Below are positions 38,445 to 54,361 of a stretch of 54,361 bases of DNA, in pieces; the stretch's first letter is position 1, and every line of letters begins with the position of its first letter. Source of the stretch: Kiritimatiellia bacterium (GTDB lineage Bacteria; Verrucomicrobiota; Kiritimatiellia; UBA8416; JADHWI01). The position numbers were made by a program, and so were the translations under genes. The notes below the pieces were generated by a model. The model saw only the letters and a program-made list of their open reading frames with translations, was not told the DNA's origin and searched no databases. The DNA lies in assembly GCA_030744755.1 (NCBI GenBank), contig JASLPY010000030.1, positions 1 through 54,361 of the forward strand. The letters run 5' to 3'.

Positions 38445-38490
38445 CTCTATCTCCGTGTATTTTCTGTTCTGCCAAGCTCTGGCGTACGAT

Positions 38491-38556
38491 TCGGAAGTCT
38501 TTGCGACTTCCGCTACATCTGGCACCGCAAGTAGCGGAACTTGCCAAAAGTTCCGA
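38491..38556. repeat. Repeat family D: inward hairpin pair
   Basis: The left unit (38491-38516) has stem GGAAGTC / GACTTCC around TTTGC, then GCTAC. The right unit (38531-38556) is GTAGC, then stem GGAACTT / AAGTTCC around GCCAA. The two units are inverted copies with changed but still pairing stems. They lie in the 115-base gap between the fused propeller-HEAT gene and the di-haem gene on the - strand. Confidence 0.8.
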
Positions 38557-38559
38557 CTG

Positions 38560-41500
38560 TCATTTCTCAGCAACAAAGACTTTACCCTTTTCGTCCAGCA
38601 GACGCACGCGAAACCACCATGGGCCGCCTGTATTTGCCACCTTTATCAGGAAGCGGTTCTTGCCCTGCTTGAGAGGGATCCTGGTGCTCGGAACCGGGAC
38701 GGTCGTCGAAGCAGACAGGTTCGCCAGGGCATTGACTTTTTCGGACACTTTTTTGTCATTTACCCACAACTTGTAGCTGTTGTCGGCCTCTATATAGGCC
38801 TGTGCGACCTGTTCCGATGGAGACTCAATGTCCGCCACCCCGTAGGCAATGCCAAAGTGCGCGGGTGGGGGCATCAACATGGCCACGTTGAGCTTGCCGG
38901 ACGCTTCCGTAACACTTGTCTCCTGCCAGCCAATATCCAGGAGTTTCGCCTCCGGCTTCTCGCCGCGCGGTAGAATCTCCATGTCCCAGACGATCTTGAC
39001 ACTGTACTTCTTGTCGAAGTCGACCTCTTTTTCGGGAGGATATGCCTTCGCAAAGCCAGAGTTCCCTTTATCGTTCGAGAAGGAGCCCAGTATTCTCCAC
39101 TTTCCAATATACCCCTGTGCGGCAGCGACGGCCGCTATGTTTTCTTCGCCCCCGAGTTGGGCCAGGCTTTCGGCGGCACGTAAGCGGCATTCAACATCTT
39201 CGCCTTCAAGATAGGGCTTCAGCAAATCAAGTGCCTTGTTGAATTCGCTGGGTGCCCTGCGACTTGCGAGAAGCTTGAAGGCGGCCAGGCGGATGATCGG
39301 ATTGTCGTCGTGAATCAGTGCTCGCAGGTAGTCGACCGTCCCTTCGCGCGGGGCAACGTCATCAGGCATCAGTGCGAGACTCTTCAGGGCGGTAACGGCC
39401 ACGGCCGCGTTCTTGTCAATGATCAGCGGACGAAACACTTCAAACAGATCCGCCCTGTCGTACAGCGAGCGACAGCGAACGGCCAAGGCCCTTATCCTGT
39501 CGTCCTCGTGCCCCAGAAAATCCGTGAAAAGAGCGGTGTGTCTTTCCGCGCCGAGTGTGACAATGGCCTGGAGGCAGGGGTAGACCGTTTCCGGAGGGAG
39601 CGAGTCGTCTTTCTTCAAAGAAGCGGAAATCGCGTCCGCCATCTGCCCTGATGGACAGACTGTTGTGGCAAAGAACACGGCTGTCCTGAACAAGTCACTC
39701 TTCCCCGATGTGAATACGGATTGAAGGTGTAACGATACATCTTCGGCGTTGAAAGACTTGAGAATGCTCTGGCCAAGGCTGTGAGCCCGGCCTTCAGGCT
39801 TATGGCGGGCGACGAGTCGTACAACCAGGGGGATGGCCCTCTTGTCGGCATGTAGCAGGCCCTCGATGACCTGGTACTGTCTTTTTTCACTTCCCGAAAC
39901 CGCGTCATACATTTCTTCCAGCCTTGCAAGCGCTTCGTCTGTGCCAAGAAAGGCAAGGGTGTGAGCCGTCGTGGCCGTAAGTTGTGGAGCGGGGTTATCC
40001 GTCAGTGCCTTCACTACCAACCAGGCTTCTTCCGGATGACTTCTGGCGCAAAGATGCGCTGCCTCAGCGCGTACCGACGGTTCCTCGTCCTTGAGAAGCT
40101 TGCGAACGACCGCGAAGGCCTCTTCGGTTCCGATGATATCGAGCGCTTCCAGCGCAGCCCGGCGAAGCACAGCATCCTTGTCCCTGGAACTTTGCTCCAC
40201 TCCGGCATACAGGTCCGCCCCCCGGATCCTCGAGAGGGCCACCAGGGCACGACCCTTTACCCAGGAGCTCTGGCCTTCTTTCAAGAGTCGCTCTATTTGC
40301 GGTGCAGCCGCCTCAACCTTGTGTCTGCCCAGCCGCTCAAGAGCCCCGGCCTGCATTATCCAGTCTTCAGACGACAGTTGCTGCACCGAGCGCTGGACAT
40401 CAACGGCCGCGAGATGGCTCCCCTTCACGGTTTCTGCAGTTGCGTTCACTATCCACGTCTTACTGATCGGGGATGAAGGCTTGTCGCGGCGCTGACCGGG
40501 AACAAGATAGAGCATGCCGGCGTGAATGGCGAAGTTCCTTACCGGATCGGCACTCTCCGGCCAAGGCATGAATTCGCGCTCGTTGCCGCTGTTCATGTCG
40601 ATGTGGCGCAGCCCGCTGCTCGTGCCGAGGAAGAGATCCGTCCCTATTACTTGCGGCCGGCCTACCGCAGGCTCTGCGATCGGAGCAATCCACAGCACCT
40701 GTCCGTCATGAATATCCATGGCGGCCAGGAAGTACTCACCAAGAACGATGACCTTCTCCCCGCACTGCCCGAGAACACGGGTTGGATTAATCTGTGCGTT
40801 CTGCCAGACGAGGGCACCGGTTTCGGCATCCAGACCGATAACGGATTTGGCGTCACGAGTATGACAGATCACCAACTTGTCGGCGACAATCGGAGCAGAT
40901 CCACCTGGTCCCCAGGGATCCATAGGGTCCCACGGATCCTCCGGACCCCATGGTGGACCGGCAGATTTGTAGTTATGGACCCATTCTATCCTGCCATCAC
41001 GTATGTCACATTTTGCCACCATCCCTGGAGCGGGAGAATAGACTGCGCCGTTATGGACGCTTACTCCATTGCAGAGTATTCTGCATCTCGCGTCAGTTCG
41101 CTGTGGAAGCGATCTGCGCCAGATGACAGATCCTGTTTCTGCGTCCATGCAGACAAGGGATGTGGAGAAACCAAGCCGGTCTTTCGTCCAGACATGATTG
41201 ACCCTCTCGGTCGCCAGGCTGTGAGTGAAGATCTGCCCTTCGAGTATCTTCGGCCCGACAACGGGTATTCCCCATATCCTGGCTTCTCCTGCTTCCCGTC
41301 CCCAACGGAAAGCTCCGGAGTTCGCGTCGAGACATACCATGTACGTTGGCCAGTGGCCATACCCGCATCCTGTGTAAATGTTCCTCCCGACAATCGAAGG
41401 GCGCAATCTGCCAGGTTTGTCCTTTCTCCAAACGCCTCCGGAATCCTTCCCCCCGGTGCCCTCTTTCCGACTCTTCGTAGAATCAGCATGGAAGATCTGG

Positions 41501-43305
41501 GTCCATGTCCGTAGCGGCGAACCGGTGTCATGGCCGTCATACCAACACATGGAATCGCTGGAAGAGAGCAGGATGTTCGTGCCGCTGAACTGAATGGACA
41601 ACCGGCCGATGCTCTCTTCGTATCCGTCTTTCGCAATCGGCCAGAGCCGCGCCAGCGGGAGTTTCACGACTTGATGTCTAAGCGAGGAAAGGGCAGGGGG
41701 AAGCGTCAGGTGTCCGGTTCCCCGCTTCAGCGGATCTGAACTTGGATGTTGGGCGTTGGACCTCGGGCGTTGGGCGTTGGACCTCGGGCGTCTCGCGTTC
41801 TCCCGCTCAACTCCCTGCAGCAGTTCTCGAATATCCCCTGCCGTGGCTTCCCCTCCCATCCAGGGGAACCTGTCATCGCTCTTTACATCCGCAAAGGCGG
41901 CCGCGAGCTCGTTCGGATCATCGCCCCGCGATATGGCAATCCACATTCCCACCTGTGCCCGTGCCCTAAGTTCCGCATCAACCGAGTGCGCAAAGATATC
42001 CTGGAACAAGCGTCTTGGGGCCTGGCCGCGGCCTCTTTCCAGTTCCTTGCTCGCGAGAATCATCAGTCCCTGCTGCGCCGTTGCCGACCACGGGTAGCGC
42101 CTGAACAGGGCCAGCAATTCGGAGGGACTACGTTCAGCCAGGCTGTCCTGCCCAATATCTCTCCTGCACTTCTTTTCCTGCAACTCGCGAAGCCCCTGCA
42201 AATCATGGCCGGGAAGACGTTTCAGGTGCCAGTCAATAACCGCGCAGGCATCGGCAAGGTCCATTCCGTCTTTTCCGGATATGGTGGAGTTATGCGCGAA
42301 TGATCTGCCGATCAGGGCATCGAGCTTCTTTTCCTGGCCTGCAATTTGACTGCGCAGAAGAAGTTCCCAGGTCTCCTTGTTGTTCCGGGGATCCAACCGT
42401 GCCAGCCAACCTCCTTGTTGATCGCCGTGATGCTCGCCGGCCAGGTTAAACAGAAATCGCTGGGCCACTTCCAACAACCCACTTGCACGGGGATCATTCC
42501 CACTCTTCTCCAGTATGCCTATGAGCTCGCGAAACAGCTCCCCGGCTCGGAGCGAACTGCCTATCCAATGGTGAAACCTTGCCCTGGCAAACATCCAGCC
42601 GGGGTCGTTCTTGCTCCCCGCAACGACCTCGTCGAAGGCTACTGCCGCCTCGAAAATCCTTCCCCTGCGCAGGTAGGTGATCAACTGCATGATATAGAGG
42701 TCACTAAGCACCGGATGGTCAAGTGAAACATAGCCGGCGTCCCTAAGGACCTTCAGCTGTCTCGCTGACCGGTCAAAGTCCAGGTCCGCTGCAGTGAAGC
42801 CAGAGAAAACGGGCCGGATTCTAAGCGCAGCCATCTGTCTGTTTACGGCTGCAGCCAGAGTAGTGTCAGAGGTGACCTGTTCTCCATCGAACCCTCCACG
42901 CGGGATCACTACGGGAGGGGACATGTTGGAAAAGGGGAAGTGGAGGATCGCATCATTCAGAAGGGATGCAACGTTTGCGCGCCCATCTGCCATGCGCCCC
43001 CTGTAAGTTGTCGAGATATGCCCTTTCACCCCAAGCTCTTCGATGACCCTGTCACTACACAGGCGGTGCAGTGCCTCAATCGTCAACGACAGGTCTCCGG
43101 GGTGGTCCGCAATAAGCTTGTTAAGAAGTCTCTGCCGTCTGGTGTGGTCGCCGCTCGCGTAAGCCTGGTCGACCTGTGCCCAAACGGCACCGACGTCAGC
43201 CTGGGCCCAGGTAGCGTGAGGCAGAACCAGGAATGCTAAGCTTATGCCGAGCAGACAGGTGATGCCTCGATCAATTTCAGAACAAGATTTCGTCACAGCT
43301 TTCAT
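38560..43305 (-). CDS. Giant exported fusion: PQQ-like propeller + HEAT + PA14-like end
   Basis: A 1581-residue secreted protein. The signal peptide ends near TWA. Residues about 35-530 form a helical, TPR-like part. An in-frame repeat insert (ENARRPRSNAQRPRSNAQ) lies at about 504-521. A PQQ-like propeller follows to about 960 (blades such as ETGALVWQNAQINPTRVLGQ). HEAT repeats run from LSSEDWIMQAGALERLG to about 1400. The end is a beta-sandwich (YIEADNSYKLWVNDKKV, then NRFLIKVANTGGPWWFRVRLLDEKG) of a carbohydrate-binding type. The N-terminal 950 residues match the separate gene at 48766, and the rest matches the separate gene at 46779. Thus it is the fused form of two neighbours. Function is unknown; a large envelope scaffold is the best guess. 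Confidence 0.8.
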   Translation of the reverse strand: MKAVTKSCSEIDRGITCLLGISLAFLVLPHATWAQADVGAVWAQVDQAYASGDHTRRQRLLNKLIADHPGDLSLTIEALHRLCSDRVIEELGVKGHISTTYRGRMADGRANVASLLNDAILHFPFSNMSPPVVIPRGGFDGEQVTSDTTLAAAVNRQMAALRIRPVFSGFTAADLDFDRSARQLKVLRDAGYVSLDHPVLSDLYIMQLITYLRRGRIFEAAVAFDEVVAGSKNDPGWMFARARFHHWIGSSLRAGELFRELIGILEKSGNDPRASGLLEVAQRFLFNLAGEHHGDQQGGWLARLDPRNNKETWELLLRSQIAGQEKKLDALIGRSFAHNSTISGKDGMDLADACAVIDWHLKRLPGHDLQGLRELQEKKCRRDIGQDSLAERSPSELLALFRRYPWSATAQQGLMILASKELERGRGQAPRRLFQDIFAHSVDAELRARAQVGMWIAISRGDDPNELAAAFADVKSDDRFPWMGGEATAGDIRELLQGVERENARRPRSNAQRPRSNAQHPSSDPLKRGTGHLTLPPALSSLRHQVVKLPLARLWPIAKDGYEESIGRLSIQFSGTNILLSSSDSMCWYDGHDTGSPLRTWTQIFHADSTKSRKEGTGGKDSGGVWRKDKPGRLRPSIVGRNIYTGCGYGHWPTYMVCLDANSGAFRWGREAGEARIWGIPVVGPKILEGQIFTHSLATERVNHVWTKDRLGFSTSLVCMDAETGSVIWRRSLPQRTDARCRILCNGVSVHNGAVYSPAPGMVAKCDIRDGRIEWVHNYKSAGPPWGPEDPWDPMDPWGPGGSAPIVADKLVICHTRDAKSVIGLDAETGALVWQNAQINPTRVLGQCGEKVIVLGEYFLAAMDIHDGQVLWIAPIAEPAVGRPQVIGTDLFLGTSSGLRHIDMNSGNEREFMPWPESADPVRNFAIHAGMLYLVPGQRRDKPSSPISKTWIVNATAETVKGSHLAAVDVQRSVQQLSSEDWIMQAGALERLGRHKVEAAAPQIERLLKEGQSSWVKGRALVALSRIRGADLYAGVEQSSRDKDAVLRRAALEALDIIGTEEAFAVVRKLLKDEEPSVRAEAAHLCARSHPEEAWLVVKALTDNPAPQLTATTAHTLAFLGTDEALARLEEMYDAVSGSEKRQYQVIEGLLHADKRAIPLVVRLVARHKPEGRAHSLGQSILKSFNAEDVSLHLQSVFTSGKSDLFRTAVFFATTVCPSGQMADAISASLKKDDSLPPETVYPCLQAIVTLGAERHTALFTDFLGHEDDRIRALAVRCRSLYDRADLFEVFRPLIIDKNAAVAVTALKSLALMPDDVAPREGTVDYLRALIHDDNPIIRLAAFKLLASRRAPSEFNKALDLLKPYLEGEDVECRLRAAESLAQLGGEENIAAVAAAQGYIGKWRILGSFSNDKGNSGFAKAYPPEKEVDFDKKYSVKIVWDMEILPRGEKPEAKLLDIGWQETSVTEASGKLNVAMLMPPPAHFGIAYGVADIESPSEQVAQAYIEADNSYKLWVNDKKVSEKVNALANLSASTTVPVPSTRIPLKQGKNRFLIKVANTGGPWWFRVRLLDEKGKVFVAEK
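41742..41795. repeat. In-frame TTGGGCGTTGG-type repeat in the fused propeller gene
   Basis: GGGCGTTGGACCTC and GGGCGTTGG units alternate here, read on the - strand as SNAQRPRSNAQ. The paralogue at 48766 has a shorter version of the same peptide at the matching site (51310-51335). The insert sits in the linker before the propeller, where extra residues are tolerated. Confidence 0.8.
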
Positions 43306-43368
43306 CGTTCAACTCTATACCGGCATCCAGCCAGTGGTGGGACTTACATAAGCTTCGGAACACCCAGA

Positions 43369-43499
43369 GTAGGCGCCTATCTCCGAGAGGCGCCAGTGGC
43401 AGTACCGCGGCGGTATTGTGAATGAATGACGCTTCCGCCGACCATTCTCTCTGCCGCCACATTCCTGCCGCCCTGCGCCTCTCGGAGATAGGCGCCTAC
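43369..43499. repeat. Repeat family A, copy 4: inward hairpin pair
   Basis: The left unit has GTA, then stem GGCGCCT (43372-43378) / AGGCGCC (43388-43394) around ATCTCCGAG. The right unit has stem GCGCCT (43475-43480) / AGGCGC (43490-43495) around CTCGGAGAT, then TAC. The layout matches copy 1 but with a different stem. It fills much of the 268-base gap upstream of the giant fusion gene, so it could lie in that gene's leader. Confidence 0.85.
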
Positions 43500-43573
43500 T
43501 TTGGAAGCGTCCCAGAATTACCTTCAGTAACCGCTATTCCAAGCTAGACTCCACATCGGCAGCAAAACCCCCG

Positions 43574-44875
43574 TTACTCCGCTATTACCTCGTAATACTC
43601 TGCGACCTGCTTTCGGAATTCAGGTGAGATCTGTTGAACGTATTTCTGGATTGCGGCGGACCGTTGTCTTTTTTCGAGCGCGGTGATCGTGGTCTGCGTC
43701 CGTTTCACTCTTTCCCCGGCGGGTCGTGTACTGGATGAGTCCAGCTTCATCTCACCCTCGCCGCCACCCCCTGGAAGACTCATCATCGCGATAGGCACTT
43801 TTAACAGGACAGGCAGGTTCCCGGGTCCCAGTTCTATCACTTCCAGGTCCTCTTCCGGCGGTTCTTCCTCCATGCTCGGCGCCACGTCGTTGTCTTCCTC
43901 GTCTATTACCTCTTTCACTTCCAGTGGTGCGATATCCATCAGCTCTTCCATGGGCAGGCCTTCCAACTCTCCGACGGCATCTATGCCTGCGGCCTCTACG
44001 GGTGGCTCTTCCATCCCGTCCGTGAGAGCCTCCGCCATTTGCGGGGGAGCTGTTTCTTCGAGCGCAGACAGAATCTTTTCCAATTCCTTAAGGGCATCCA
44101 GTCCCTCGTCCTGGTGATCCAACGCATCCGCGGCCCTTTTCTCCCGTATGCTGGCAGCGGCATCCTCGAGCAACGCCCGCGGATCGCTCTTCTCCATGGA
44201 TCCCTGTGCCTTCTGCAGTTGTTCCAGGACTTCGCCTTCGCTTACTCCATCGACGGTTTCTTCGAGTTTCTCTCCGAAACCCGTAAGTCTCTCTACGAGC
44301 TGCTCCTGTGTGTCTGCGATCTTTTCTTCCTCCTTTTCAGCGGCTGCAGGATCGACAAGCAGTGCCTTACCCCAGTCCAGGGTCTTATCCCTGAGAAGCT
44401 CCTCGGCTTCGATTATGGCAGCGATCTCGGCAAGCAGATCATCCAGGTTAAGGGAAGAAGCGGTTTCATCCAGCAACCGGTCCAACTCGGTGATTATGGT
44501 TTGAATCTCCTTTCCTGCACTGTCGAGATGTGGATACGCATTGTCTGTCCTGGTTCGCGCCTTTCTAAGGAATCCGGTCACGGAGGGAACATTCTCGCCC
44601 TGTACTTTGGCCAGTGAGACGCCCATCTTGGCAACGGTATCCCCGCCGCCTTCCTTCGCCAGACGGTTTGATTCCAGGTCGGCCAGCAGCCAATCGATCC
44701 TGTCGACTGTTCGCCCCAGGTCCAGGCCAACATTCGACTGTCTGCGTTCCTCGATTCGTATCCGCTCGATTGCCTTCGGCGCTCGACTCGGCGCATCGTT
44801 CTGAGCCCTGGAACATATGGGCATGAGTAGAACCAGGAGTGCCGTCAGAAGATGGTCTCTGATTCTCTGTTTCAT
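43574..44875 (-). CDS. Exported acidic coiled-coil protein with EYYEVIAE tail
   Basis: A 433-residue protein of unknown function. A signal peptide (MKQRIRDHLLTALLVLLMPICSRA) is followed by a long, Glu/Leu-rich helical region with coiled-coil character (about 45-300), an acidic Pro/Glu stretch (EEDNDVAPSMEEEPPEEDLEV), a Gly patch (GGGGEGE) and a compact basic end. The last 43 residues (TQTTITALEKRQRSAAIQ, then YVQQISPEFRKQVAEYYEVIAE) are nearly the same as the end of the partial protein at 54044. Proteins of this plan accompany envelope operons with squalene-cyclase-like proteins in PVC bacteria. CGGAGG precedes the ATG. The tail may be an interaction or sorting element. Confidence 0.75.
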   Translation of the reverse strand: MKQRIRDHLLTALLVLLMPICSRAQNDAPSRAPKAIERIRIEERRQSNVGLDLGRTVDRIDWLLADLESNRLAKEGGGDTVAKMGVSLAKVQGENVPSVTGFLRKARTRTDNAYPHLDSAGKEIQTIITELDRLLDETASSLNLDDLLAEIAAIIEAEELLRDKTLDWGKALLVDPAAAEKEEEKIADTQEQLVERLTGFGEKLEETVDGVSEGEVLEQLQKAQGSMEKSDPRALLEDAAASIREKRAADALDHQDEGLDALKELEKILSALEETAPPQMAEALTDGMEEPPVEAAGIDAVGELEGLPMEELMDIAPLEVKEVIDEEDNDVAPSMEEEPPEEDLEVIELGPGNLPVLLKVPIAMMSLPGGGGEGEMKLDSSSTRPAGERVKRTQTTITALEKRQRSAAIQKYVQQISPEFRKQVAEYYEVIAE

Positions 44876-44940
44876 TGCCGCCTCCGAACCCCTGTCCTGT
44901 GGCGGGATAAGGGTTCGTTCTCCATGCCGTTGCGCTCTTC

Positions 44941-44992
44941 GGGAGGGACGACGGCCTCGGCGTCCACGGGCAGCGGGGCCGCTGCCCCTCCC
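44941..44992. repeat. Repeat family B, copy 3: outward hairpin pair
   Basis: GGGAG is followed by unit 1 (44946-44965), with stem GGACGAC / GGCGTCC (one mismatch) around GGCCTC, then AC. Unit 2 (44968-44987) has stem GGGCAGC / GCTGCCC around GGGGCC and is followed by CTCCC. The units point outward, the opposite of copies 1 and 2. It lies between two same-strand genes of the envelope array. Confidence 0.8.
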
Positions 44993-45061
44993 ATTGCACA
45001 ATTGTGGCGCACTGTTGTCAGATTCCCGTCCCCTCGACGTGCTTGTTCGTAGCAGATGCCA

Positions 45062-46723
45062 TTATTGCCCCTTCACCACGTATGCGTTGCCAAGGTCAGC
45101 CCCGCAGGGGTACGCAATCCTCCCCCCGAACTCAACACGGATAGTCAACGCGTCGCCCGCTGGAAGCTCCAGGGCCAAAGCTTGCGGTTCAGCGTCGGAT
45201 TCGAGCGCTTTGTTGAAAAGGCTGCGACCGGATACCTCCACGCTGATATCCACGTCTCCGCGACAGCCGGGTTCCGGCATCAGGACCGCGCACAGTTTTC
45301 TCCTGCTGCCCGAAAAAGGCAGTTTGTAGCTGGCAACGGTTTCTGCAGACACCCGAATCGTGCCCGGTGAAACACTGTTCTCCTCTCCACCAGGGCCTAC
45401 CTCGTGTGGCGGGGGAGGGGGGTAAAGGGCGCCCTTCAGTTCCGTCTTCACATCATTGACCTGGCTTAACCAAACAACATCCGGGCGTGTTCTTCTAATA
45501 GACCTCACAAGATTCCAATCCACGGAGACCGATTTCAAAACAGGATGGGTGATAACAAGGCTCTTGCCGGCGAGTGCAACCGTCCCTCGAAGCATGGACC
45601 CATCAACCAGTGCTATCTCATCCGTTTCGCCGTCCCATGTGATGTCTTCTTCTGTCACAAAGCGGTAACAGGCAAGCCCCGCCCGTGGGATTTCCAGCAT
45701 ACCGAAGCGGGATTCGAAGGCGAGAGAATCGGTTCCGATACTGACCACTGTGCCCGCGACCGGATCTCCTGCCTCGCGGTAGAGAATTCCGCTTCTGTTG
45801 AATGATCCTCCATCTGCCCGGGGAGTGAAATCCAGGCACGCAACGGCCTTGGTGTCTACCTCATGTTTGCCGATTAACGGTCCTTCAATGTTCAGCTTGC
45901 CCGGTTTGCCGGACACGAATCCTGCTCTCAAGATCTCGCCGTTCACGAGACGCACGAAAGGTGTTGGCCCGTACTTCTTGAGTCCCTTTCGGAAATCAAC
46001 ACATACGATGTCCTCCAAAGGGACCGTCCGACCGTTGACGCTGAGCTGTCCATCGCTCACATCCAGGCCCCCAGACAGTGGTACCCCCGTGGTATGTACG
46101 GTTCCGTCGACAACGGGTGCCTGGGGGAGGGTGCTGATTACCCGCGGCGCCGGTTGATCACTCTGGATGATGTTGTCGACACAGACATGGCCCGACAAAT
46201 GGTTCGTTACATCGACGACCTCGATCCGTGCGCGTCGGCCGGCATATGCGGAAACATCGAAAGACACCGCTTTCATGGCTGTGGAGAAGTCGCCCGTTGC
46301 CGACCTGACGACTGCACCATCGACGACAAGATTCAGGGAGGCCCGTCCCGGATAACGGCCGCCGGAGATTAGAAACTTGATGTATTTCCTGGCGATTGTG
46401 AATTCCGGTGACCCAGCCCGCCCGGTCCCAAGATCTATCAATGGACCAGGCTTGATGGACTTTGACGCCCACGCTTTCTGGGGAGCGATGCTTGAGAGGA
46501 ATCTTTTGCCCTGCAACCCGGAGACCGATAGCTGTTCGGCATCGAGGACATAAGTCGTCCCATCGAACCTCCATTGTCCCCCTGAATCCTTCTGCTGCGA
46601 TTCTCGCCCTTGTTCGAAATCCGCGATTAGGATGTCACCCGCGGCTGTACCGCTTCTACAGGCCAGTAGCAGAGCAATGACGGAGAGAGCAGTGAGCCAC
46701 TTCTTATGGAATGCGGTGTTCAT
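45062..46723 (-). CDS. Exported NPCBM-like protein with SH3/LSm-like repeats
   Basis: A 553-residue secreted protein. The signal peptide ends near GTAAG. Residues about 30-195 are a jelly-roll sandwich (ILIADFEQGRE, then GHVCVDNII). The centre has three similar small-barrel units: LRAGFVSGKPGKLNIEG, VAGTVVSIGTDSLAFESRFGMLEIPR and LRGTVALAGKSLVITH, each like an LSm/SH3 strand set. The C-terminal part (YKLPFSGSRRKLCAVL to VEFGGRIAYPCGADLGNAYV) looks like an NPCBM carbohydrate-binding module. No enzyme motif is visible, so the role is probably binding a cell-wall or capsule sugar. The start at 46723 lacks a good ribosome site; the gene follows the HEAT gene after 55 bases. Confidence 0.72.
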   Translation of the reverse strand: MNTAFHKKWLTALSVIALLLACRSGTAAGDILIADFEQGRESQQKDSGGQWRFDGTTYVLDAEQLSVSGLQGKRFLSSIAPQKAWASKSIKPGPLIDLGTGRAGSPEFTIARKYIKFLISGGRYPGRASLNLVVDGAVVRSATGDFSTAMKAVSFDVSAYAGRRARIEVVDVTNHLSGHVCVDNIIQSDQPAPRVISTLPQAPVVDGTVHTTGVPLSGGLDVSDGQLSVNGRTVPLEDIVCVDFRKGLKKYGPTPFVRLVNGEILRAGFVSGKPGKLNIEGPLIGKHEVDTKAVACLDFTPRADGGSFNRSGILYREAGDPVAGTVVSIGTDSLAFESRFGMLEIPRAGLACYRFVTEEDITWDGETDEIALVDGSMLRGTVALAGKSLVITHPVLKSVSVDWNLVRSIRRTRPDVVWLSQVNDVKTELKGALYPPPPPHEVGPGGEENSVSPGTIRVSAETVASYKLPFSGSRRKLCAVLMPEPGCRGDVDISVEVSGRSLFNKALESDAEPQALALELPAGDALTIRVEFGGRIAYPCGADLGNAYVVKGQ

Positions 46724-46778
46724 TGTCTGGTACCATATGTTTAACCTGTCGTCCCTGTCACTATAGCTCAGAAAGGAT

Positions 46779-48734
46779 TCACTTCCCAACCGCAAACACT
46801 TTTCCTTTCTCATCCAGCAGGCGCACGCGAAACCACCATGGACCGCCTCTGTTTGCCACCTTGACCAGCAGCCTGTTGCTGCCTTTCTTGAGGGTTATCT
46901 TACCGGTCGTAACAGGGACATGGTATTCCCTGGAATGATGATGGTGCGTCTTGACCTCAGTGTCATCTCTTTCGGATGCCTGTTGCCCGTTCACCCACAG
47001 CCTGAAACAGTTATCCGCCTCGATAAGTGTCTGGACAACCTGGTTTGATGGAGAATGGATATCCGCCACGCAGTAGGCGACGTTGTAATAAGCCGGTGGC
47101 GGCATCAACATGGCGACGTTGAGCTTGCCGTCCTCTTTCGTGGCCTGTGCGTGCTGCCATTCAATCTCCGCGGTCTTCACTTCCCTTTTCTCATTGAGCT
47201 TCCCCCCTTTCAGGTCCCACAGAATCTCGACAGTGTACTTCGCGTTGAAGTCTATCTCCGTTTCCGGCTCGTGCACTTCCTTGAAACCCGAGTTCTCCTT
47301 GTCGTTCAGAAATGGGCCCAGTATCTTCCACTCACCGATGTAGCCCTGTGCCGCTACGATCAATGGCATCTCTTCATGACCGCCAAGCTCTGCCAGCACT
47401 TCCGCGGCTCTCTGCCGGTAATCGCTATTCCTACCCGCGAGATAGGGCCTGAGCATTGCCAGGGCCTTGTCGAATTCTTCAGGCTTTCCTCGCTTCCCCA
47501 GAAGGGCAAGCGCGGTGAACAGGATATGTCGGTCATTACTCTGGAGCGGCCCTTTCAGATATTCAGCTATGTCTTCACCCGGGGCAATTCCAAGCGGCAC
47601 CAGGTCCAGGCTCTCAAGAGCGGCCACGGCCACATCTCTATTCTTGTCAATCGTCTGTGCTCTAAATGCTTCAAACAGGTCTTTCTTTTCACAAAGCGCG
47701 CGCGAGCGCACAGCCTGTTCCCTTACCTTATTGTCCGTGTGCGCAAGGTAACCTGTAAACAGGGCCGTATGCCTCGCCGGTTCAATTGTAATAAGGGCCT
47801 GAAGACATGCGCAGATTGCTGCCGATTTAAGCGTTTCATCCTTCTTCAGTAAGGCTGTTATAGAGTCTTCCAGTTTCTTTGACGGACAGACGGTGGCCGC
47901 AAAGAAAGCTGCTGTTTCGTAAAGGTCGGTTTTGTCGGAAATGAACATCGACTGCAGTACGGATGATACGTCTTCCTTCTTCAACGAATTCAAAATGTTC
48001 TGACCCAGGATCTTCGCCCTGGACTTATCCTGGTGCCGGGCTACGAGCCTTACGAGTAGAGGTATTGCTTTCTCGTTAGCGTAGCGGAGGCCCTGGATGA
48101 CCTCATATTGTCTTTCCTTGTCCTTCGATAATGCTTCATACAGTCCTTCCATTCTTTGAAGAGCGTCAGTCGTCCCGATACCGGCAAGCGCCCGTGCCAG
48201 GGTGCTGGTAAGCCGCGGATCCGGCTTCTCTGTCAGTTCCTTGACTACCGGCCATGCTTCGGCAGGATAAGGTCTAGCGCAAAAACGCGCCGCTTCGGCC
48301 CTGACGGAAGCATCCTTGTCTTTGAGGAGCTCGCGCGCAACCTCCGTCGCCTGCTTCGTACCAATGAGCTCAAGCGCTTCCACGGTGGCACGGCGAATCA
48401 CTGCGGATTCATCCCTGGAAAGCTGCAATGCTGCGGCGTACAATTCTTTGCCGCCGATCCGGGACAGGGCCACCAGGGCGCGGCCCTTTATCCACGTGGT
48501 TTTGCCTGTCTTGAGAATTTTCTCTATTTCCGGTACAGCGTGTTCAACCTTGTTTCTGCCCAGCAGTTCAAGGGCCTCGGCCTGGAGTATCCAGTCGTCA
48601 GACGACAACTGCATTGTCAGCCTGTGGGCTTCCTGGAGAGCGAGCGCGGGCTCTTTTTCCGCGTAAGAAGAAGCTGACATCAAGGTAAGTGCCATGAAGA
48701 TAATTAAGTGTTGCCGGATGGACGTCATGGTCAT
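46779..48734 (-). CDS. Exported HEAT-repeat protein with PA14-like end
   Basis: A 651-residue secreted protein. After the signal peptide (to about SSYAE) HEAT repeats begin at LSSDDWILQAEALELLG and continue to about residue 440; the last about 180 residues form a beta-sandwich (YIGEWKILGPFLNDKENSGF, IEADNCFRLWVNGQQ, NRLLVKVANRGGPWWFRVRLLDEKG). The whole chain matches the C-terminal 630 residues of the giant fusion at 38560, while the gene upstream (48766) matches that fusion's N-terminus. It starts 31 bases after the propeller gene stops, so the pair is co-expressed. It probably works as one complex with the propeller protein. Confidence 0.8.
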   Translation of the reverse strand: MTMTSIRQHLIIFMALTLMSASSYAEKEPALALQEAHRLTMQLSSDDWILQAEALELLGRNKVEHAVPEIEKILKTGKTTWIKGRALVALSRIGGKELYAAALQLSRDESAVIRRATVEALELIGTKQATEVARELLKDKDASVRAEAARFCARPYPAEAWPVVKELTEKPDPRLTSTLARALAGIGTTDALQRMEGLYEALSKDKERQYEVIQGLRYANEKAIPLLVRLVARHQDKSRAKILGQNILNSLKKEDVSSVLQSMFISDKTDLYETAAFFAATVCPSKKLEDSITALLKKDETLKSAAICACLQALITIEPARHTALFTGYLAHTDNKVREQAVRSRALCEKKDLFEAFRAQTIDKNRDVAVAALESLDLVPLGIAPGEDIAEYLKGPLQSNDRHILFTALALLGKRGKPEEFDKALAMLRPYLAGRNSDYRQRAAEVLAELGGHEEMPLIVAAQGYIGEWKILGPFLNDKENSGFKEVHEPETEIDFNAKYTVEILWDLKGGKLNEKREVKTAEIEWQHAQATKEDGKLNVAMLMPPPAYYNVAYCVADIHSPSNQVVQTLIEADNCFRLWVNGQQASERDDTEVKTHHHHSREYHVPVTTGKITLKKGSNRLLVKVANRGGPWWFRVRLLDEKGKVFAVGK

Positions 48735-48765
48735 TAATACCTGCCTGATTGTTTTCTCAATAGAA

Positions 48766-51700
48766 CTATTTCCCACTCACATAAGCGTAAATGCCATTAC
48801 GGTCATGTATCAGCAAAAGTCCATTACGAAGTATGCAATGCGGCATGACAACGTTATTGATCTTCCTCTGGTTACTGTCCGGAATATCAACAGTCTCCAG
48901 AACCTGGGAGCCAAGATGTTTTCTCTTCTTGATGTCGTGAGCTGCAATGCTTGTTCCTGGTTCTTCCTTGTTATGCCTCAGAACATACATAATATCACCT
49001 TCACCTCTCACGTAAACCGGGACGGACGATTTCTCGGCAAACTTGTGAGAGAACATCTCTTTTCCAGAGTCCAGGTCAATGGCATGAAGGATCGATTCTT
49101 TCATGTTTTCTTTGATCAACACGTTGTCCTGGATATGTGCCAGCCTTGTGTCGGCCTCAAGATCGATGTTTCGTTCAAAATCGGGATTATCGTCACGCAG
49201 TACGGCAATGGAGCAGGGCTCTTTCCTGTGCTTGAGTTCTGTCGACCGATAATTCCTGTCATTCGCAAGAACAAGAAATGGAGGGTTATGAGAAACAATT
49301 TCCATGTCGTCCCGGTCCAGGGCAACAGCAGGGTTCTTAAAGTCCACCCTGAATGATCCTTTTCTGCCATGCTTTATTCTGACGTTGGTTACATTGAAGA
49401 AGAAGGCCTTTGAACCAAACACGACTTCACGAAGCATGCCAATACCAACCGTGCCAATCAAGGGCACTTCCTTGTCACCATCCAGTATCGTTACACGCTC
49501 TGGACTGTCCTCCCTGGGAACTCCTGTCCTTAGATCATGGGTCCGCCAGAGGACCTCGGGCGTCCAGTAATACTGGCGAATAATGTGAACGGTATTGTCC
49601 TTCAAGCCCATGTACGCGTTGCTGTACTCTTGTCCGTCCCGCTCCCAGAGGCGCCTGCCGGCAATCATGTCAAAGACCCCGACCCCGCTGTGTCTTCGTA
49701 TAAACAGCAGCGGGCCTTTACAGTCGACATGCCTCCAGCGCGTCTCCACCGGCATGCTGTAGTTCCTGATATGCTTGCCAGTATTCATGTCGTATATCAC
49801 GACCAGTGACCCTTCGCGATGGTCGCTGCCCTTTTTCATGAACAGGACAACCTTACCGTCATAAAAAAACACGTGTGCAGGCTCGGGTCCGATCAGCTTG
49901 CGCCAGATGGTGCCGCCGCGGGGTGTTACATCAATACATTCAAGCACCTCTCGCGAATGCAAAATGGCCTTGTCCCGGTTCAAGCTGTCATCTGGAGGTA
50001 CATATAGTCTCACTCCGGGCCTATCAATGCTCCAGGCTGCTTCTAGAGGGAGCCTGAGCGGTTTTGATCTCGTGGACAGTTTACTGTTGAATGGCTTGTT
50101 CAATGTTGACGGAACGCTATCACGCGGCTCACCCGTAACAACATACAGCTTGTCGTCATTAACGGCGAAGTTCCTGACAGAATCGCTGCATTTCGGCCAG
50201 GATATGAATTCAAGTTCATTTCCGGTGCTGACATCAATCCGCCTCAGGCCATCGGTTGTACCCATGACAACATCAGTACCAATCAACTGCGGCTGGCCCA
50301 CAACAATATCTTTCAAAGGTATGAGCCATATCACAGCCCCTGTTTCAACGTCCAGAGCCGCCATATTGAATTCGCCTTGTACAATCACCTTGTCTCCGGA
50401 CATAGCCAGGAGACGAATTGGATTAAGCATGGGGTTTTCCCATATCAATCCACCCGTGTGAATATCAATACACATTACCTGTGAGCAATCGCGGGGACGG
50501 CAGATAACGGTATTTCCGTTTATAATCAGGGGCGAATTAGATAAGGCCGGTACTATGTTTCTTCTATTCTCAGAATTGTACTTCCGGCACCATTCCATCC
50601 TGCCGTCCCGAATGTCATGACGCGCGACATACCCCATCCCTGAGGACAGGTAAACAGCTCCATCATGAACAACCGGCGGGGACGCAAGGGTTGATATCAC
50701 TGATATGTTGTTTGAAGGCTTGAAATCGTATCTTTCCGGCAGCCTGCTCATCCGGCGTTGCCATATTGTTGATCCTGTCGCCGAATCCATACAACTCATG
50801 CTCATTGCGTTCCTGCCAGTCACCTTGTTGCGGCCCCTCGCGCTGTCCCAGCTGATGTTATACAGCAGGCCTTCGCAAAGCGTTGAATCGATGAGGGGTA
50901 TTTCTGTATCGGTATGTGCTGCCTGCCCCCTGCCTGATCCCCAGATCGCCCTGCCGCTCTGAAGATCAAAAGCAGCAACCTGGCTTGGAATGTCTGCGTA
51001 TCCCCATCGCCTGTATATTGTTCCATCGTTGATGGTTGGCCGGCATGTTACGGGGTCACTCTTGCGTTCCTGCATTATCTCGCCGCATGGAGCAATCCAT
51101 GCCGGACGACTGACATCGCCAATGTCATAACACAGCATGGCGTTCTGCGAACTTATCAGGAGCTTCTTATCTGCAAACTGCATCGACATAAGGCCTATTC
51201 CCGCATCACACCGTTTGTTGGAAGCAGGCCAGAATCGGGCTGTGGGGAGGCCGACCACTTGCGGACGAAGAGAAGAAAGTGTCAAGGGGCGAGTAACAAC
51301 GGTGTTTCTACTTCGATGTTGGGCGTTCGAATTCTCTATTCCCTCCAGAAGCCGTTTCCTTATCTCGCCTGCCGCAACTTCCTCCCCCATCCACGGAAAT
51401 CTGTCACTGTCCTTGATGTTCTTGAACGCGGCAACGAGAGCATGCTTATCCCCGCTTCTGGCTATTGCCATCCATAATCCGGCCTGGGCCTGCGCGCGAA
51501 GCCTCGTGTCAAGAGAGTGATCAAGGATGTCCCGGAACGAACGCCGCGGGCCTTGCCCTCGGCCAGCCATCAATTCTCTCCTGCCGACAAGCAAGAGAGC
51601 CCGGTGCGCCGTTGCCGACCATGGATAACGGCGGTACATGGCAAGCAGCTGAGAAGAACTCATTATCTCGAGATCATTCTGCGCTATACTCCTGCTGCAG

Positions 51701-52923
51701 GACTTTTCCTGTAATTCTCGCAGGCCCTTAAGACTTGCAGCCGGCAGCTGTCTCAGCTGCCAGTCAAGAATCGCGCAGCAGTCGGCTATCTTCTTTCCGT
51801 TCCTTCCGGGCATGGTAGAGTCATTCGCGAGCGATATGCCAATCAACCCGTCGATATCCTGTTCTACGCCTGAGATCTTGCCGTCAAGAACTGCGCGCCA
51901 CAGGTGCGCCTTGTCTTCAGGCACCATGCCTGCCGGCAAGTGAACACGCGGTTCACGCTGGCCTCCACCCGCAAGGTAATGCTGATACTGCAAGGCAAGG
52001 TTCGATAATTCTTGAAGCCTGGAATTGGCTTTGCCTTTTTCCAATAATGGGAAGAGCTTACGAAACATATCGCCTGCGCGTTCCGAACCAAGCCAGTCAT
52101 AGAACCTTGCCCTGGCGAACATCCAGCCGGGGTCGTTATTGCTGTCGGAGACGACATCATCAAACGATTTTGCCGCGTCGTAAAGCCTTCCCTGGCACAT
52201 ATACATGAACAGCTCCATGATATAGAGGTCACGCAGGAGCGGATCATTACGCGGCAGGAAGCCCCCGTCCCGCAATGCCCTGAGCCGTTTTGCCGCCCGG
52301 TCAAACTCCGGGTCATACGAATCAACCCTATATATGTTGTGGTGGCGCTTGAAATGAGCAACTGCCCTGGCTGCTGACTCCGCGGTATGACCGTCAACGG
52401 GAACCGTTTCCCGCGCAGACCAGCCCTTTGAGACTGATATTGGAAGTTGCAGTTCTTCGATGGAAAGAGGGAAATAGAACATGGCGTCATGGAGCGATGA
52501 CACGACCATGGAACAGCCATGCTGCATACGCCCGCGGTAGCTTCCCGATATATGTTTCCGCAGAAAGTTCTTGTGACGATTAAGAACGAGATATCGTTTG
52601 TCCAGCCGCTCTATGATCCTGTCACAGCAAAGACGGTGCAGGACCCTGGCGGCCAGCGATACGTCACCGGGATTGGCGGCAATAAGTGCCTCGAGAATCT
52701 GCCGCCCTTCTGCCGGCTCACTTTTCTCAAAGGCTTCTTCCGCCTGTTTCCAGAGAGCGGCGGTTTTGTCGTCTGAGGAGGCAAAACTGAGCGAAACAAG
52801 AAGCAGAAAGGCTAAAATGATACGGGATACGGGATGCGGGATACGAGATGGGCGTTGGGCGTTGGGCGTTGGATGTTGGGCGTTCAAGTTGCTTCTTCCG
52901 CATTCATCTTGTCGCCCTGACAC
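48766..52923 (-). CDS. Giant exported PQQ-like propeller protein
   Basis: A 1385-residue secreted protein. The helical first part contains PGDVSLAARVLHRLCCDRII, NNDPGWMFARARFYDWLGS and RRYPWSATAHRALLL, all matching the fusion protein at 38560. Propeller blades follow (ETGAVIWLIPLKDIVVGQPQLIG, DIHTGGLIWENPMLNPIRLLAM), and about 400 further residues form a second propeller absent from the fusion. The n-region of the signal peptide is odd: NAQHPTPNAQRPSRIPHPVSRII is encoded by dispersed repeats and leads directly into the hydrophobic LAFLLLVSLSFASS. The only supportable start is a GTG at 52923; a nearby ATG at 52939 is out of frame. This is the first long gene after the squalene-cyclase-like gene. 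Confidence 0.78.
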   Translation of the reverse strand: MSGRQDECGRSNLNAQHPTPNAQRPSRIPHPVSRIILAFLLLVSLSFASSDDKTAALWKQAEEAFEKSEPAEGRQILEALIAANPGDVSLAARVLHRLCCDRIIERLDKRYLVLNRHKNFLRKHISGSYRGRMQHGCSMVVSSLHDAMFYFPLSIEELQLPISVSKGWSARETVPVDGHTAESAARAVAHFKRHHNIYRVDSYDPEFDRAAKRLRALRDGGFLPRNDPLLRDLYIMELFMYMCQGRLYDAAKSFDDVVSDSNNDPGWMFARARFYDWLGSERAGDMFRKLFPLLEKGKANSRLQELSNLALQYQHYLAGGGQREPRVHLPAGMVPEDKAHLWRAVLDGKISGVEQDIDGLIGISLANDSTMPGRNGKKIADCCAILDWQLRQLPAASLKGLRELQEKSCSRSIAQNDLEIMSSSQLLAMYRRYPWSATAHRALLLVGRRELMAGRGQGPRRSFRDILDHSLDTRLRAQAQAGLWMAIARSGDKHALVAAFKNIKDSDRFPWMGEEVAAGEIRKRLLEGIENSNAQHRSRNTVVTRPLTLSSLRPQVVGLPTARFWPASNKRCDAGIGLMSMQFADKKLLISSQNAMLCYDIGDVSRPAWIAPCGEIMQERKSDPVTCRPTINDGTIYRRWGYADIPSQVAAFDLQSGRAIWGSGRGQAAHTDTEIPLIDSTLCEGLLYNISWDSARGRNKVTGRNAMSMSCMDSATGSTIWQRRMSRLPERYDFKPSNNISVISTLASPPVVHDGAVYLSSGMGYVARHDIRDGRMEWCRKYNSENRRNIVPALSNSPLIINGNTVICRPRDCSQVMCIDIHTGGLIWENPMLNPIRLLAMSGDKVIVQGEFNMAALDVETGAVIWLIPLKDIVVGQPQLIGTDVVMGTTDGLRRIDVSTGNELEFISWPKCSDSVRNFAVNDDKLYVVTGEPRDSVPSTLNKPFNSKLSTRSKPLRLPLEAAWSIDRPGVRLYVPPDDSLNRDKAILHSREVLECIDVTPRGGTIWRKLIGPEPAHVFFYDGKVVLFMKKGSDHREGSLVVIYDMNTGKHIRNYSMPVETRWRHVDCKGPLLFIRRHSGVGVFDMIAGRRLWERDGQEYSNAYMGLKDNTVHIIRQYYWTPEVLWRTHDLRTGVPREDSPERVTILDGDKEVPLIGTVGIGMLREVVFGSKAFFFNVTNVRIKHGRKGSFRVDFKNPAVALDRDDMEIVSHNPPFLVLANDRNYRSTELKHRKEPCSIAVLRDDNPDFERNIDLEADTRLAHIQDNVLIKENMKESILHAIDLDSGKEMFSHKFAEKSSVPVYVRGEGDIMYVLRHNKEEPGTSIAAHDIKKRKHLGSQVLETVDIPDSNQRKINNVVMPHCILRNGLLLIHDRNGIYAYVSGK
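52817..52890. repeat. Low-complexity repeats encoding part of a signal peptide
   Basis: At about 52817-52848 the unit GATACGGGAT is repeated with variations; at 52851-52890 the unit GGGCGTTGGGCGTTG is repeated. On the - strand they encode the first about 35 residues of the propeller protein. The same units occur in other genes of this window, so the signal peptide n-region is repeat-derived. Confidence 0.78.
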
Positions 52924-52940
52924 TCGACACTTTCACCATT

Positions 52941-54047
52941 CTACCTCTGGTAGATCGGAAGAAAACGGTAAGGAACTCCGATGATCAGAATTGCCATGGG
53001 CGTTGAGTAGGAAGCGCCTTCCTCCATGTTCCAACTACCGTCTGACTGCTGCTTGGAAAGCAGTGTACTCGTGATCTTTGGGTACCATGAATTGAAGTCT
53101 GCATTTCCCGACTGGTACATGCACTGTATCGCATAGTATTGCGCGTAGAGGAGGCGTCCCGCCGCACTCTTGAACTTGTTCTCCGGGTAGGCCCTCAGGA
53201 ACATCATCCCACGCTTGACGGATGGATGCTTACGCTGACCGCACAGGATGAGCGATAACACGCCTGCGCCAGTCCTGGCAAAACCAGGCCCGCCCGAACT
53301 CGTGTATCCGAACCCGCCGCTGGTTTCGTCCTGGCAGGAAAGCACGTACTTCGCCGCTTTGACGAGCGTGGCATCGGGTACGTAGATGCCGGCTTCTTTT
53401 GCCGAGTTCAGCGCGACGATATGCATGCCTGTCATCGACATATCCGCATCTTTTGGGTCCGGGTTGTATCGCCAGCCGCCCTTGGGGTTCTGTGCGCGAA
53501 GTGTGATGGTGACAGCCTTCTTGAGTGCAGGTCCGATTTTGCGGTTCTTGCTCTGACCCCAGGCTTCGGAAAGAGCCAAAACGGCCAGTCCGTGTTCGTA
53601 CATTCCTGCGTGGTTGCTTGGTGAACCCAGGTAGCCCTGCTGTTTCTTGCCGAGATTCAACAGGTACGCTATGGCGTTCTCGATGTTCCTGCCATAGACA
53701 CCAGTCTCCGACATGTGGCCCTGCAACAGGAAAGCCATCAGCCCCAGGGCCGTATCCGCAGAGGCGTGATTGCTGCCCCAGTGACCGTCCTCGGCCTGGT
53801 TCTTTGCCAACCATGCAAGCCCGCTGTTGACAGCCTCGACTACCTCAGGTTGCAGTTTGACTGTTCCCACCCGCTGTTCAGGAAGGGACTCCTGGGAAAG
53901 AGCTGCGAGGGAGAATCCGAAGATCAACGCAAGTGTCAGGACAACTCTCCATCCTGCGCCTGGAACCTGCCACATCGGCGACTCTGTCGCCAAGTGGCCA
54001 TTTGCCGCAAAACGGCGACGTGGAAACCTGAAATCTGAAGCCTTCAC
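52941..54047 (-). CDS. Exported squalene cyclase/prenyltransferase-like repeat protein
   Basis: A 368-residue alpha/alpha-barrel protein of the prenyltransferase/squalene oxidase repeat type. QW-like motifs recur: KNQAEDGHWGS, AQNPKGGWRYNP, QDETSGGFGYTSSG and KQQSDGSWNMEEG. The DXDD acid motif of true squalene-hopene cyclases is not seen, and the chain is about half their length, so it is not a terpene cyclase; such proteins in PVC genomes are secreted and of unknown role. The GTG at 54047 overlaps the previous stop (GTGA) and has GAGGTGAT upstream, so coupling is likely. Its first 24 residues include a palindromic repeat; an ATG at 53975 starts directly before the hydrophobic signal segment and is the alternative. 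Confidence 0.82.
   Translation of the reverse strand: MKASDFRFPRRRFAANGHLATESPMWQVPGAGWRVVLTLALIFGFSLAALSQESLPEQRVGTVKLQPEVVEAVNSGLAWLAKNQAEDGHWGSNHASADTALGLMAFLLQGHMSETGVYGRNIENAIAYLLNLGKKQQGYLGSPSNHAGMYEHGLAVLALSEAWGQSKNRKIGPALKKAVTITLRAQNPKGGWRYNPDPKDADMSMTGMHIVALNSAKEAGIYVPDATLVKAAKYVLSCQDETSGGFGYTSSGGPGFARTGAGVLSLILCGQRKHPSVKRGMMFLRAYPENKFKSAAGRLLYAQYYAIQCMYQSGNADFNSWYPKITSTLLSKQQSDGSWNMEEGASYSTPMAILIIGVPYRFLPIYQR
53971..54018. repeat. Palindromic repeat inside the start of the squalene cyclase-like gene
   Basis: GGCGAC (53977-53982), TCT, GTCGCC (53986-53991) forms a hairpin extended by CCAC / GTGG on the outside. A second, looser hairpin follows (GCCG, CAAAA, CGGC, 54004-54016). If the GTG at 54047 is used, the palindrome is translated as part of the leader (GHLATESPMW). 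Confidence 0.6.
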
Positions 54048-54361
54048 TCTGCTATCACCTCATAGTATTCCGCAACTTGTTTCCTGAATTCAGGTGAGAT
54101 CTTCTGCACATATTTCTGGATGGCGGCCGAGCGTTGCCTTCTCTCAAGAGCGGTGATCGTTGTTTGCGTGCGCTGTGCCTTCTCGCCACTGGCTTCTGTA
54201 GAAGAAAAGCCGCTCGAATCAATAGGCATGTCGTCCGGCGGATCGCCCGGAGGTCCAGGAGCCCATTTTCCTCCCATCCCCGGCATCATACCCATACCCA
54301 TAGCCATACCCATGCCCATACCCATGCCTTCGCCCATGCCTTCGCCCATGCCTTCGCCCAT
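54044..54361 (-). CDS. 3' part of an exported Gly/Met-rich protein with EYYEVIAE tail
   Basis: The window cuts the 5' end, so only the last 105 residues are seen. They open with a low-complexity run of GEGMG and GMGMG units encoded by a GCCCATACCCAT-type DNA repeat, then a Pro-rich linker, then TQTTITALERRQRSAAIQ and YVQKISPEFRKQVAEYYEVIAE, nearly identical to the end of the coiled-coil protein at 43574. Its stop overlaps the next gene's GTG start. The full protein is likely the counterpart of the 43574 product in the upstream half of the duplicated array. Confidence 0.8.
   Translation of the reverse strand: MGEGMGEGMGEGMGMGMGMAMGMGMMPGMGGKWAPGPPGDPPDDMPIDSSGFSSTEASGEKAQRTQTTITALERRQRSAAIQKYVQKISPEFRKQVAEYYEVIAE

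What the first reader, a model, noticed from the sequence alone, without database searches (positions are those of the whole stretch)
38560..54361. A duplicated envelope array with a split and a fused version of the same protein
On the - strand the order is: tail protein (54044), squalene-cyclase-like, propeller, HEAT, NPCBM-like, tail protein (43574), propeller-HEAT fusion, di-haem protein. The propeller gene plus the HEAT gene equal the fusion gene almost end to end, and each version follows a protein with the EYYEVIAE tail. By the gene-fusion (Rosetta stone) logic, the separate propeller and HEAT proteins should bind each other. Nearly all members have export signals, and several have sugar-binding-type ends. 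This is the best candidate for an undescribed system in the window: a large periplasmic or surface complex.
Basis: partly seen in the sequence, partly recalled or inferred. Interest (0 to 1): 0.78.

Follow-up and report, generated by a model that had tools for sequence, protein, structure and literature searches.

The report
MoxR operon with duplicated exported scaffold
This stretch holds a set of predicted secreted proteins in two related versions, one with two of the proteins joined into a single chain, and it is likely the second half of a large bacterial gene cluster whose energy-using ATPase would assemble them outside the inner membrane; it matters because the job of such clusters is unsettled.

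Summary
The window ends at a contig break inside a Gly-Met-Gly-Glu repeat. Contig C520 of the same genome shares an exact 35-base overlap there and carries MoxR, DUF58, an exported protein of unknown fold, two membrane VWA proteins, a DUF4175-like protein and the missing start of the tail protein. So the array is likely the distal half of one Bat-type operon, followed by a second copy of four of its exported genes (unknown-fold protein, tail, propeller, HEAT) in the same order, with propeller and HEAT fused. Propeller and HEAT are neighbours in 11 of 11 loci examined, in both gene orders. The fusion recurs full length (83% identity) in another data set. It does not equal both genes end to end: it drops the split propeller gene's last 440 residues and puts HEAT there. 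The di-haem neighbour is one of 87 such places in this genome and likely not a part. Best reading, function inferred: a MoxR/VWA machine assembles an exported propeller-HEAT scaffold, perhaps gripping the conserved acidic tail. No binding was shown; the model of the fused chain was uninformative. New variant of a known kind.

The parts
54044..54361 (-). C-terminal end of tail protein 1 (cut by the contig edge), ends EYYEVIAE
   Evidence: Rest lies on contig C520, 35-base exact end overlap; tail alignment
52941..54047 (-). SQC: exported squalene-cyclase/prenyltransferase-like protein, 368 aa
   Evidence: Pfam PF13243 33.8 bits, cut-off 26.1; 50-58% identical homologues in the same position
48766..52923 (-). 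Split propeller protein, 1385 aa; residues 545-933 (window 50125-51291) model as a BamB-like propeller; residues after about 945 are a further all-beta part that the fusion lacks
46779..48776 (-). Split HEAT protein, 665 aa, with an all-beta C-terminal domain
   Evidence: HEAT_2 95 bits; homologues
45062..46813 (-).
   Evidence: No Pfam or NCBIfam match; 49% to copy 1 on C520
43574..45001 (-). Tail protein 2, 475 aa (true start likely at residue 43), ends EYYEVIAE
   Evidence: 50% to the N-part and 76% to the C-part of tail 1
38560..43305 (-). Propeller-HEAT fusion, 1581 aa; HEAT part is residues 952-1581 (window 38560-40452)
36108..38576 (-). Di-haem HZS_alpha-type protein; neighbour, probably not part of the system
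   Evidence: PF18582 75.9 bits, two CxxCH; 87 places in the genome
43376..43492 (.). Inverted-repeat pair between tail 2 and fusion, member of a genome-wide family; not taken as a functional part

Best explanation
Judging from matching contig ends, the array is likely the second half of one MoxR-DUF58-VWA (Bat-type) operon, followed by a second copy of four of its exported genes in which propeller and HEAT are fused; the ATPase and VWA proteins likely assemble an exported scaffold in which propeller and HEAT are predicted to bind each other. Shown by sequence: MoxR, DUF58, two VWA proteins with three hydrophobic segments and a DxSxS motif each, a DUF4175-like membrane protein, and unknown-fold, tail, SQC, propeller and HEAT proteins with N-terminal hydrophobic stretches; the same order in relatives; a second set (unknown-fold, tail, propeller, HEAT) without ATPase, VWA, DUF4175 or SQC gene; the fusion of the first propeller to HEAT with the split protein's last 440 residues left out. 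Inferred: the VWA domains face the periplasm; a VWA metal site (MIDAS) grips the acidic C-terminal tail (EYYEVIAE) of the tail protein; MoxR, driven by ATP, remodels or loads the propeller-HEAT complex; the second set is a second payload served by the same single machine, which would be why the machine genes are not kept twice. The final role of the scaffold (cofactor or surface assembly) is not known.
For: Contig C520: 35-base exact overlap with the window end, same GC (0.554 and 0.553), complementary halves of one tail gene. Small gaps, -4 to 72 nt, between the C520 genes. Propeller and HEAT adjacent in 11 of 11 loci with SQC upstream in 11 of 11 and a tail gene in 10 of 11; HEAT before propeller in 9, propeller before HEAT in 2, so the pair stays together through a change of order. 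Fusion 83% conserved in another data set, seam included (0.84 and 0.88 in the two 50-residue blocks). The seam falls just after the end of a complete BamB-like propeller and HEAT's signal peptide is gone. The second set keeps the order of the first and holds four of the operon's five exported proteins and none of its five ATPase, DUF58, VWA or DUF4175 genes. Tail ends conserved in 9 of 9 aligned ends, after a Gly-rich or variable stretch. MoxR/VWA precedent: in NorQD the VWA MIDAS binds acidic client residues and ATP hydrolysis remodels the client (PMC9976466, passages).
Against: No binding shown. The model of the fused chain has pTM 0.55 with its propeller half mostly under pLDDT 50. Distance correlation HEAT-propeller given SQC is only 0.44 over ten related loci. 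The full fusion is seen in one lineage only (window and P0001). The 35-base overlap lies in a tandem repeat and is weak by itself. In G188 SQC-HEAT-propeller has no MoxR, VWA or tail match in the 11 kb upstream, so the pair can stand without a linked machine. Deleting batABD in Leptospira biflexa gave no altered growth, morphology or oxidant tolerance (PMC3557215, passages), so a role of the machine cannot be taken from that precedent. MoxR is cytosolic by sequence, and how it would act on periplasmic clients is unexplained.
Confidence: 0.45

Rival explanations
1. Cofactor-maturation cluster of the Mxa type: the MoxR/VWA machine puts a metal or cofactor into the propeller, which would be an enzyme, with HEAT and SQC as helpers.
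For: MoxR, DUF58 and VWA genes stand beside PQQ-type propeller genes here, as mxaR and mxaS stand in the methanol dehydrogenase operon (PMC9728263, passages; that MxaR is a MoxR and MxaS a DUF58 protein is recalled). NorQD inserts iron into its client (PMC9976466, passages).
Confidence: 0.2
2. The fusion is a neutral accident: a deletion between two neighbouring genes joined them, and the two proteins need not bind. The second set is a decaying duplicate.
For: The genes were neighbours in the same order before (window set 1 and G335); the deletion removed 440 residues of the propeller gene; the second set has lost most of its operon; one lineage only.
Against: The fused frame is open over 1581 codons and kept at 83% in a relative, with the seam as well kept as the rest; the seam lies at a domain end; the tail ends of both sets are 76-85% identical against about 50% elsewhere.
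Confidence: 0.2
3. A cytoplasmic MoxR-vWA-propeller conflict (ternary) system.
For: The C44 MoxR matches bpMoxR (PF20030) at 46.9 bits, over the cut-off of 27; such propeller systems are reported in planctomycetes and verrucomicrobia (PMC7159879, passages).
Against: There the propeller is fused to the vWA protein; here the two C44 VWA proteins show no propeller match and the propeller proteins are separate and carry export-type N-termini. AAA_3 fits the MoxR far better, 205 bits.
Confidence: 0.05

Closest known systems
Bat (Bacteroides aerotolerance) operon: MoxR, DUF58, BatA-E
   Same: MoxR, DUF58 and a BatA-type VWA protein with N-terminal double membrane segment
   Different: Extra unknown-fold, VWA/amidotransferase-like, DUF4175-like, tail, SQC, propeller and HEAT genes; no BatD or TPR (BatC/E-type) family match among the ten C44 operon proteins scanned
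Mxa/Mox methanol dehydrogenase operon (mxaR, mxaS with mxaFJGI)
   Same: MoxR-type and DUF58-type genes next to an exported propeller gene (gene list of PMC9728263, passages; family assignments recalled)
   Different: The propeller is not in the PQQ dehydrogenase family by curated cut-off; HEAT, SQC and tail proteins are extra
NorQD / CbbQO MoxR-VWA chaperones
   Same: MoxR ring plus VWA protein with MIDAS motif; proposed way of working (PMC9976466, passages)
   Different: NorD is described there as cytosolic with one VWA domain; here two VWA proteins carry three hydrophobic segments each
MoxR-vWA-beta-propeller ternary systems (bpMoxR)
   Same: MoxR, VWA and propeller in one cluster; bpMoxR match over cut-off
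   Different: Propeller not fused to VWA; exported; no effector domain identified
BamB
   Different: 31.5 bits against the BamB model's cut-off of 285 for the fusion; long N-terminal region and HEAT part extra

Membership tests
Bat operon | MoxR followed by DUF58 | tested here: met
   AAA_3 205 bits, DUF58 134 bits on C44; 78% and 72% identical genes on C520
Bat operon | BatA-type VWA membrane protein | tested here: met
   PF07584 44.9 bits, cut-off 25.9 (C44); TIGR02226 58.8 bits, cut-off 23 (C520)
Bat operon | BatD and TPR proteins (BatC/E) | tested here: not met
   No such Pfam match among the ten C44 operon proteins scanned; C520 proteins were not scanned against Pfam except its unknown-fold protein
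Bat operon | Role in oxygen tolerance | not testable with these tools
   Needs a mutant
Mxa/Mox methanol dehydrogenase operon | PQQ-dependent dehydrogenase (MxaF type) | tested here: not met
   TIGR03075 17.1 bits against 480 for the fusion; the split propeller was not scanned against NCBIfam
MoxR-vWA-propeller ternary system | Propeller C-terminal in the vWA protein | tested here: not met
   Neither C44 VWA protein has a propeller match
MoxR-vWA-propeller ternary system | bpMoxR-type ATPase | tested here: inconclusive
   46.9 bits over the cut-off of 27, but AAA_3 205 bits
NorQD/CbbQO-type chaperone | VWA domain with MIDAS motif | tested here: met
   DxSxS at residue 102 (BatA-VWA) and 94 (VWA) on C520; the remaining MIDAS residues were not checked
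NorQD/CbbQO-type chaperone | Cytosolic VWA partner without membrane segments | tested here: not met
   Three hydrophobic segments in each VWA protein; DUF58, with DxSxS and no segment, could play that part
BamB family | Curated BamB model over cut-off | tested here: not met
   TIGR03300 31.5 bits against 285.2 for the fusion

The most novel reading that the evidence does not exclude
An undescribed periplasmic assembly machine: MoxR and DUF58 drive membrane VWA proteins that grip the acidic YYExLAE end of a tether protein and load interchangeable propeller/solenoid payloads onto it. One genome holds five such operons with different payloads, and in this one the payload set was doubled and two of its parts fused while the machine stayed single.
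Probability: 0.3. Interest if true: 0.75.

Novelty: new variant of a known kind. Interest (0 to 1): 0.52.

Why it matters
The task of Bat-type MoxR-DUF58-VWA clusters is unsettled: a batABD deletion in Leptospira biflexa showed no defect in growth, morphology or oxidant tolerance (PMC3557215, passages), while a 2025 title in a search listing reports effects of MoxR in Riemerella (PMC11834572, listing only). This locus offers a handle: a fused propeller-HEAT client, a conserved C-terminal tail that may be the docking signal, and a natural experiment in which the client set was doubled but the machine was not. Each can be tested with a few purified proteins.

Tried and rejected
Contact between propeller and HEAT from the fused chain: AlphaFold2 on fusion residues 541-1581 with 36 rows gave good confidence for HEAT and most of the C-terminal domain only; the propeller half was mostly under 50, likely because the separate propeller rows aligned poorly. 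Inconclusive, not negative. Its structure matches are helical repeat proteins of many kinds, so the HEAT part gave no functional lead.

Distance correlation of HEAT against propeller with SQC as control: r 0.91, partial r 0.44 over ten loci; G076 and the second propeller genes of L036-L038 were left out. Too few and not independent; not used as support.

Remnants of lost genes between tail 2 and fusion: the best tblastn match shown in the 268-nt gap was E 0.28; the printed list was cut at 20 lines.

Viral contigs with the HEAT protein: no confirmed relative. PDB profile searches with the unknown-fold and tail alignments gave best E 0.26 and 0.012, the latter in a low-complexity stretch; taken as chance. 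Promoter- and terminator-like sites: 10 found against 9.1 expected (sd 3.9), 24 against 18.0 (sd 3.8); not used.

Further fusions: the C221 protein of 1667 aa holds a weak match to HEAT's C-terminal domain and a propeller, but that domain occurs in many proteins (83 of 345 genomes match the HEAT profile at E 1e-10, most places in its C-terminal part), so I do not count it as a second propeller-HEAT fusion; likewise the 2322-aa protein of G056. P0002 (100%, 1278 aa) is listed without source, which the tool uses for proteins of the window itself, and is not counted as independent. P0010, 614 aa, groups with the fusion HEATs, but whether it is part of a fused gene is unknown. A TrAA12 match in the C486 tail-type protein (39 bits) likely reflects low complexity and is not used.

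Limits of the surveys: searches scored at most three candidates per genome and at most six, so the counts are lower bounds.

Paper searches. In the listings I saw no paper on MoxR operons with SQC, HEAT and propeller genes; two searches returned nothing. This covers open-licence full texts only.

Full report
What is there. The eight reported open frames are present on the - strand. Pfam sees HEAT_2 and PQQ_2 in the fusion, HEAT_2 in the HEAT protein, PQQ_2 in the propeller protein, squalene-cyclase/prenyltransferase-type domains in SQC, HZS_alpha in the di-haem protein, and nothing in the two tail ORFs and the 'NPCBM-like' protein, which I call the unknown-fold protein. Self-comparison by blastp gives fusion against HEAT 54% over HEAT residues 32-665, and fusion against propeller 40% over propeller residues 35-945 of 1385. 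The fusion is therefore the N-terminal region (a weak TPR match in the G335 homologue) plus one propeller plus HEAT, not the sum of both genes.

The missing half. The window is the whole of contig C233 of the genome and stops inside an ATGGGCGAAGGC repeat. Searching the genome with the tail protein of the paralogous C44 operon gives four places: C44, the two in the window, and one at the edge of contig C520 that covers only the N-terminal part. C520's first 35 bases equal the window's last 35. Since this is a repeat the overlap alone is weak; the complementary halves and the synteny with G335, G026 and C44 make the join likely. C520 carries, in order of transcription, MoxR, DUF58, unknown-fold protein 1, BatA-VWA, a VWA protein whose C44 counterpart has a weak glutamine-amidotransferase-like match, a DUF4175-like protein and tail 1, with gaps of -4 to 72 nt.

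The second copy. With a pairwise aligner, unknown-fold protein 2 is 49% identical to copy 1, tail 2 is 50% to the N-part and 76% to the last 66 aligned positions of tail 1, and the fusion is 44% and 54% identical to propeller and HEAT. The order unknown-fold, tail, propeller, HEAT is that of set 1 with MoxR, DUF58, both VWA genes, DUF4175 and SQC left out. The simplest history is a tandem duplication of the operon followed by loss of those six genes from the second copy (inferred; no remnants found). In the HEAT tree (30 rows) the fusion HEATs of window and P0001, with P0010, group beside the split HEATs (window, P0007, P0008) with modest support, 85/74, inside a clade of eight with G335 and P0009 at 100/99. 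So the doubling is likely younger than the split from G335, whose locus shows one set.

Conservation. With the HEAT profile, 83 of 345 genomes of the class match at E 1e-10, but most matches are to the C-terminal domain; proteins of the family proper occur in 7 of 345 (G000, G005, G026, G056, G188, G335, and G076 in pieces). In a draw of 387 genomes of the phylum, 4 match at 1e-60, all among those seven. At most three candidates per genome were scored in both. The one scan of named genomes confirmed three further loci, labelled Verrucomicrobiota by the tree tool. Over the 11 loci with a separate HEAT gene (window set 1, C44, G005, G026, G056, G188, G335, G076, L036, L037, L038) a propeller gene is the next matched gene in 11, and SQC lies upstream in 11 (G076 across two contigs); a tail gene lies upstream of SQC in 10, not in G188. 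HEAT precedes propeller in 9; propeller precedes HEAT in 2 (window, G335). MoxR was seen in four loci (C520, C44, G335, G026); in the others the DNA I held ends before it, except G188, where the 11 kb upstream show no match to any machine gene. SQC itself is common: 237 of 332 genomes at 1e-40. The eight best SQC places (452-524 bits) are those of the seven HEAT genomes; five of the eight were rows of the profile, three (G335, G188, G076) were not.

Other MoxR operons of the genome. C221, C486 and C530 each carry MoxR, DUF58, BatA, VWA, DUF4175-like and SQC homologues. Companions differ: on C221 a protein with NPCBM and laminin-G domains and a 1667-aa protein with PQQ_2; on C486 a protein with a propeller match; on C530 none was seen in the held stretch. 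Their tail-type proteins hold looser versions of the motif at or near the end: YQYFKAMGAR, KRYFEGLE, KKYFRELA. So the machine seems constant and the payload variable (inferred).

How it may work. MoxR and DUF58 have no hydrophobic segment by the script's threshold; both VWA proteins have two N-terminal segments with a positive loop between them and one near the C-terminus, which by the positive-inside rule puts the VWA domain in the periplasm (inferred). In NorQD the VWA MIDAS binds acidic residues of the client and ATP hydrolysis by the MoxR ring is needed to activate it (PMC9976466, passages). The tail protein ends in a conserved stretch, Y[YF]E[VT][LI][AG] near the terminus in 9 of 9 aligned ends, after a Gly-rich or variable stretch; I propose it as the VWA ligand. 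This is untested, and how a cytosolic ATPase would act across the membrane is open.

Verdict. The array is likely the distal half of an extended Bat-type operon with a doubled exported set. Propeller-HEAT binding is the likeliest meaning of the fusion, at modest strength. The system is a new variant of a known kind whose job is unsettled.

Noticed in passing
window 36108-38576; whole genome G000: 87 places in this 6.28-Mb genome match HZS_alpha (hydrazine synthase alpha middle domain) over the cut-off, 0 of 14 control genomes; in 57 genomes searched (own included) 20 have any, the next highest count being 26. A striking family expansion of unknown role.
   Followed up: partly
window 6158-6240, 24263-24313, 36000-36050, 43376-43492: CCTCTCGGAGATAGG occurs 8 times as four inverted pairs (0.13 expected) and 112 times in the genome, control 0: a REP-like palindromic element family; one pair sits between tail 2 and the fusion.
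   Followed up: partly
L050, L051, L052 (contigs C221, C486, C530): Three more MoxR-DUF58-BatA-VWA-DUF4175-SQC operons in the same genome with other companions, among them a true NPCBM plus laminin-G protein on C221.
   Followed up: partly
L036:11773-19843, L037:11464-19837: Two propeller genes in tandem after HEAT, a separate propeller doubling; the second of L036 carries an F5/8 type C domain. L038 starts a second one at its contig end.
   Followed up: no
L052:7954-11979: On C530 the DUF4175-like and tail-type regions appear to be one 1341-aa protein, a possible second fusion hint within this operon type; the tail match is weak (E 6e-4).
   Followed up: no
window 38440-38576: The di-haem ORF's TTG start overlaps the fusion gene; a start near residue 45 gives a signal peptide and a gap of about 115 nt.
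   Followed up: no
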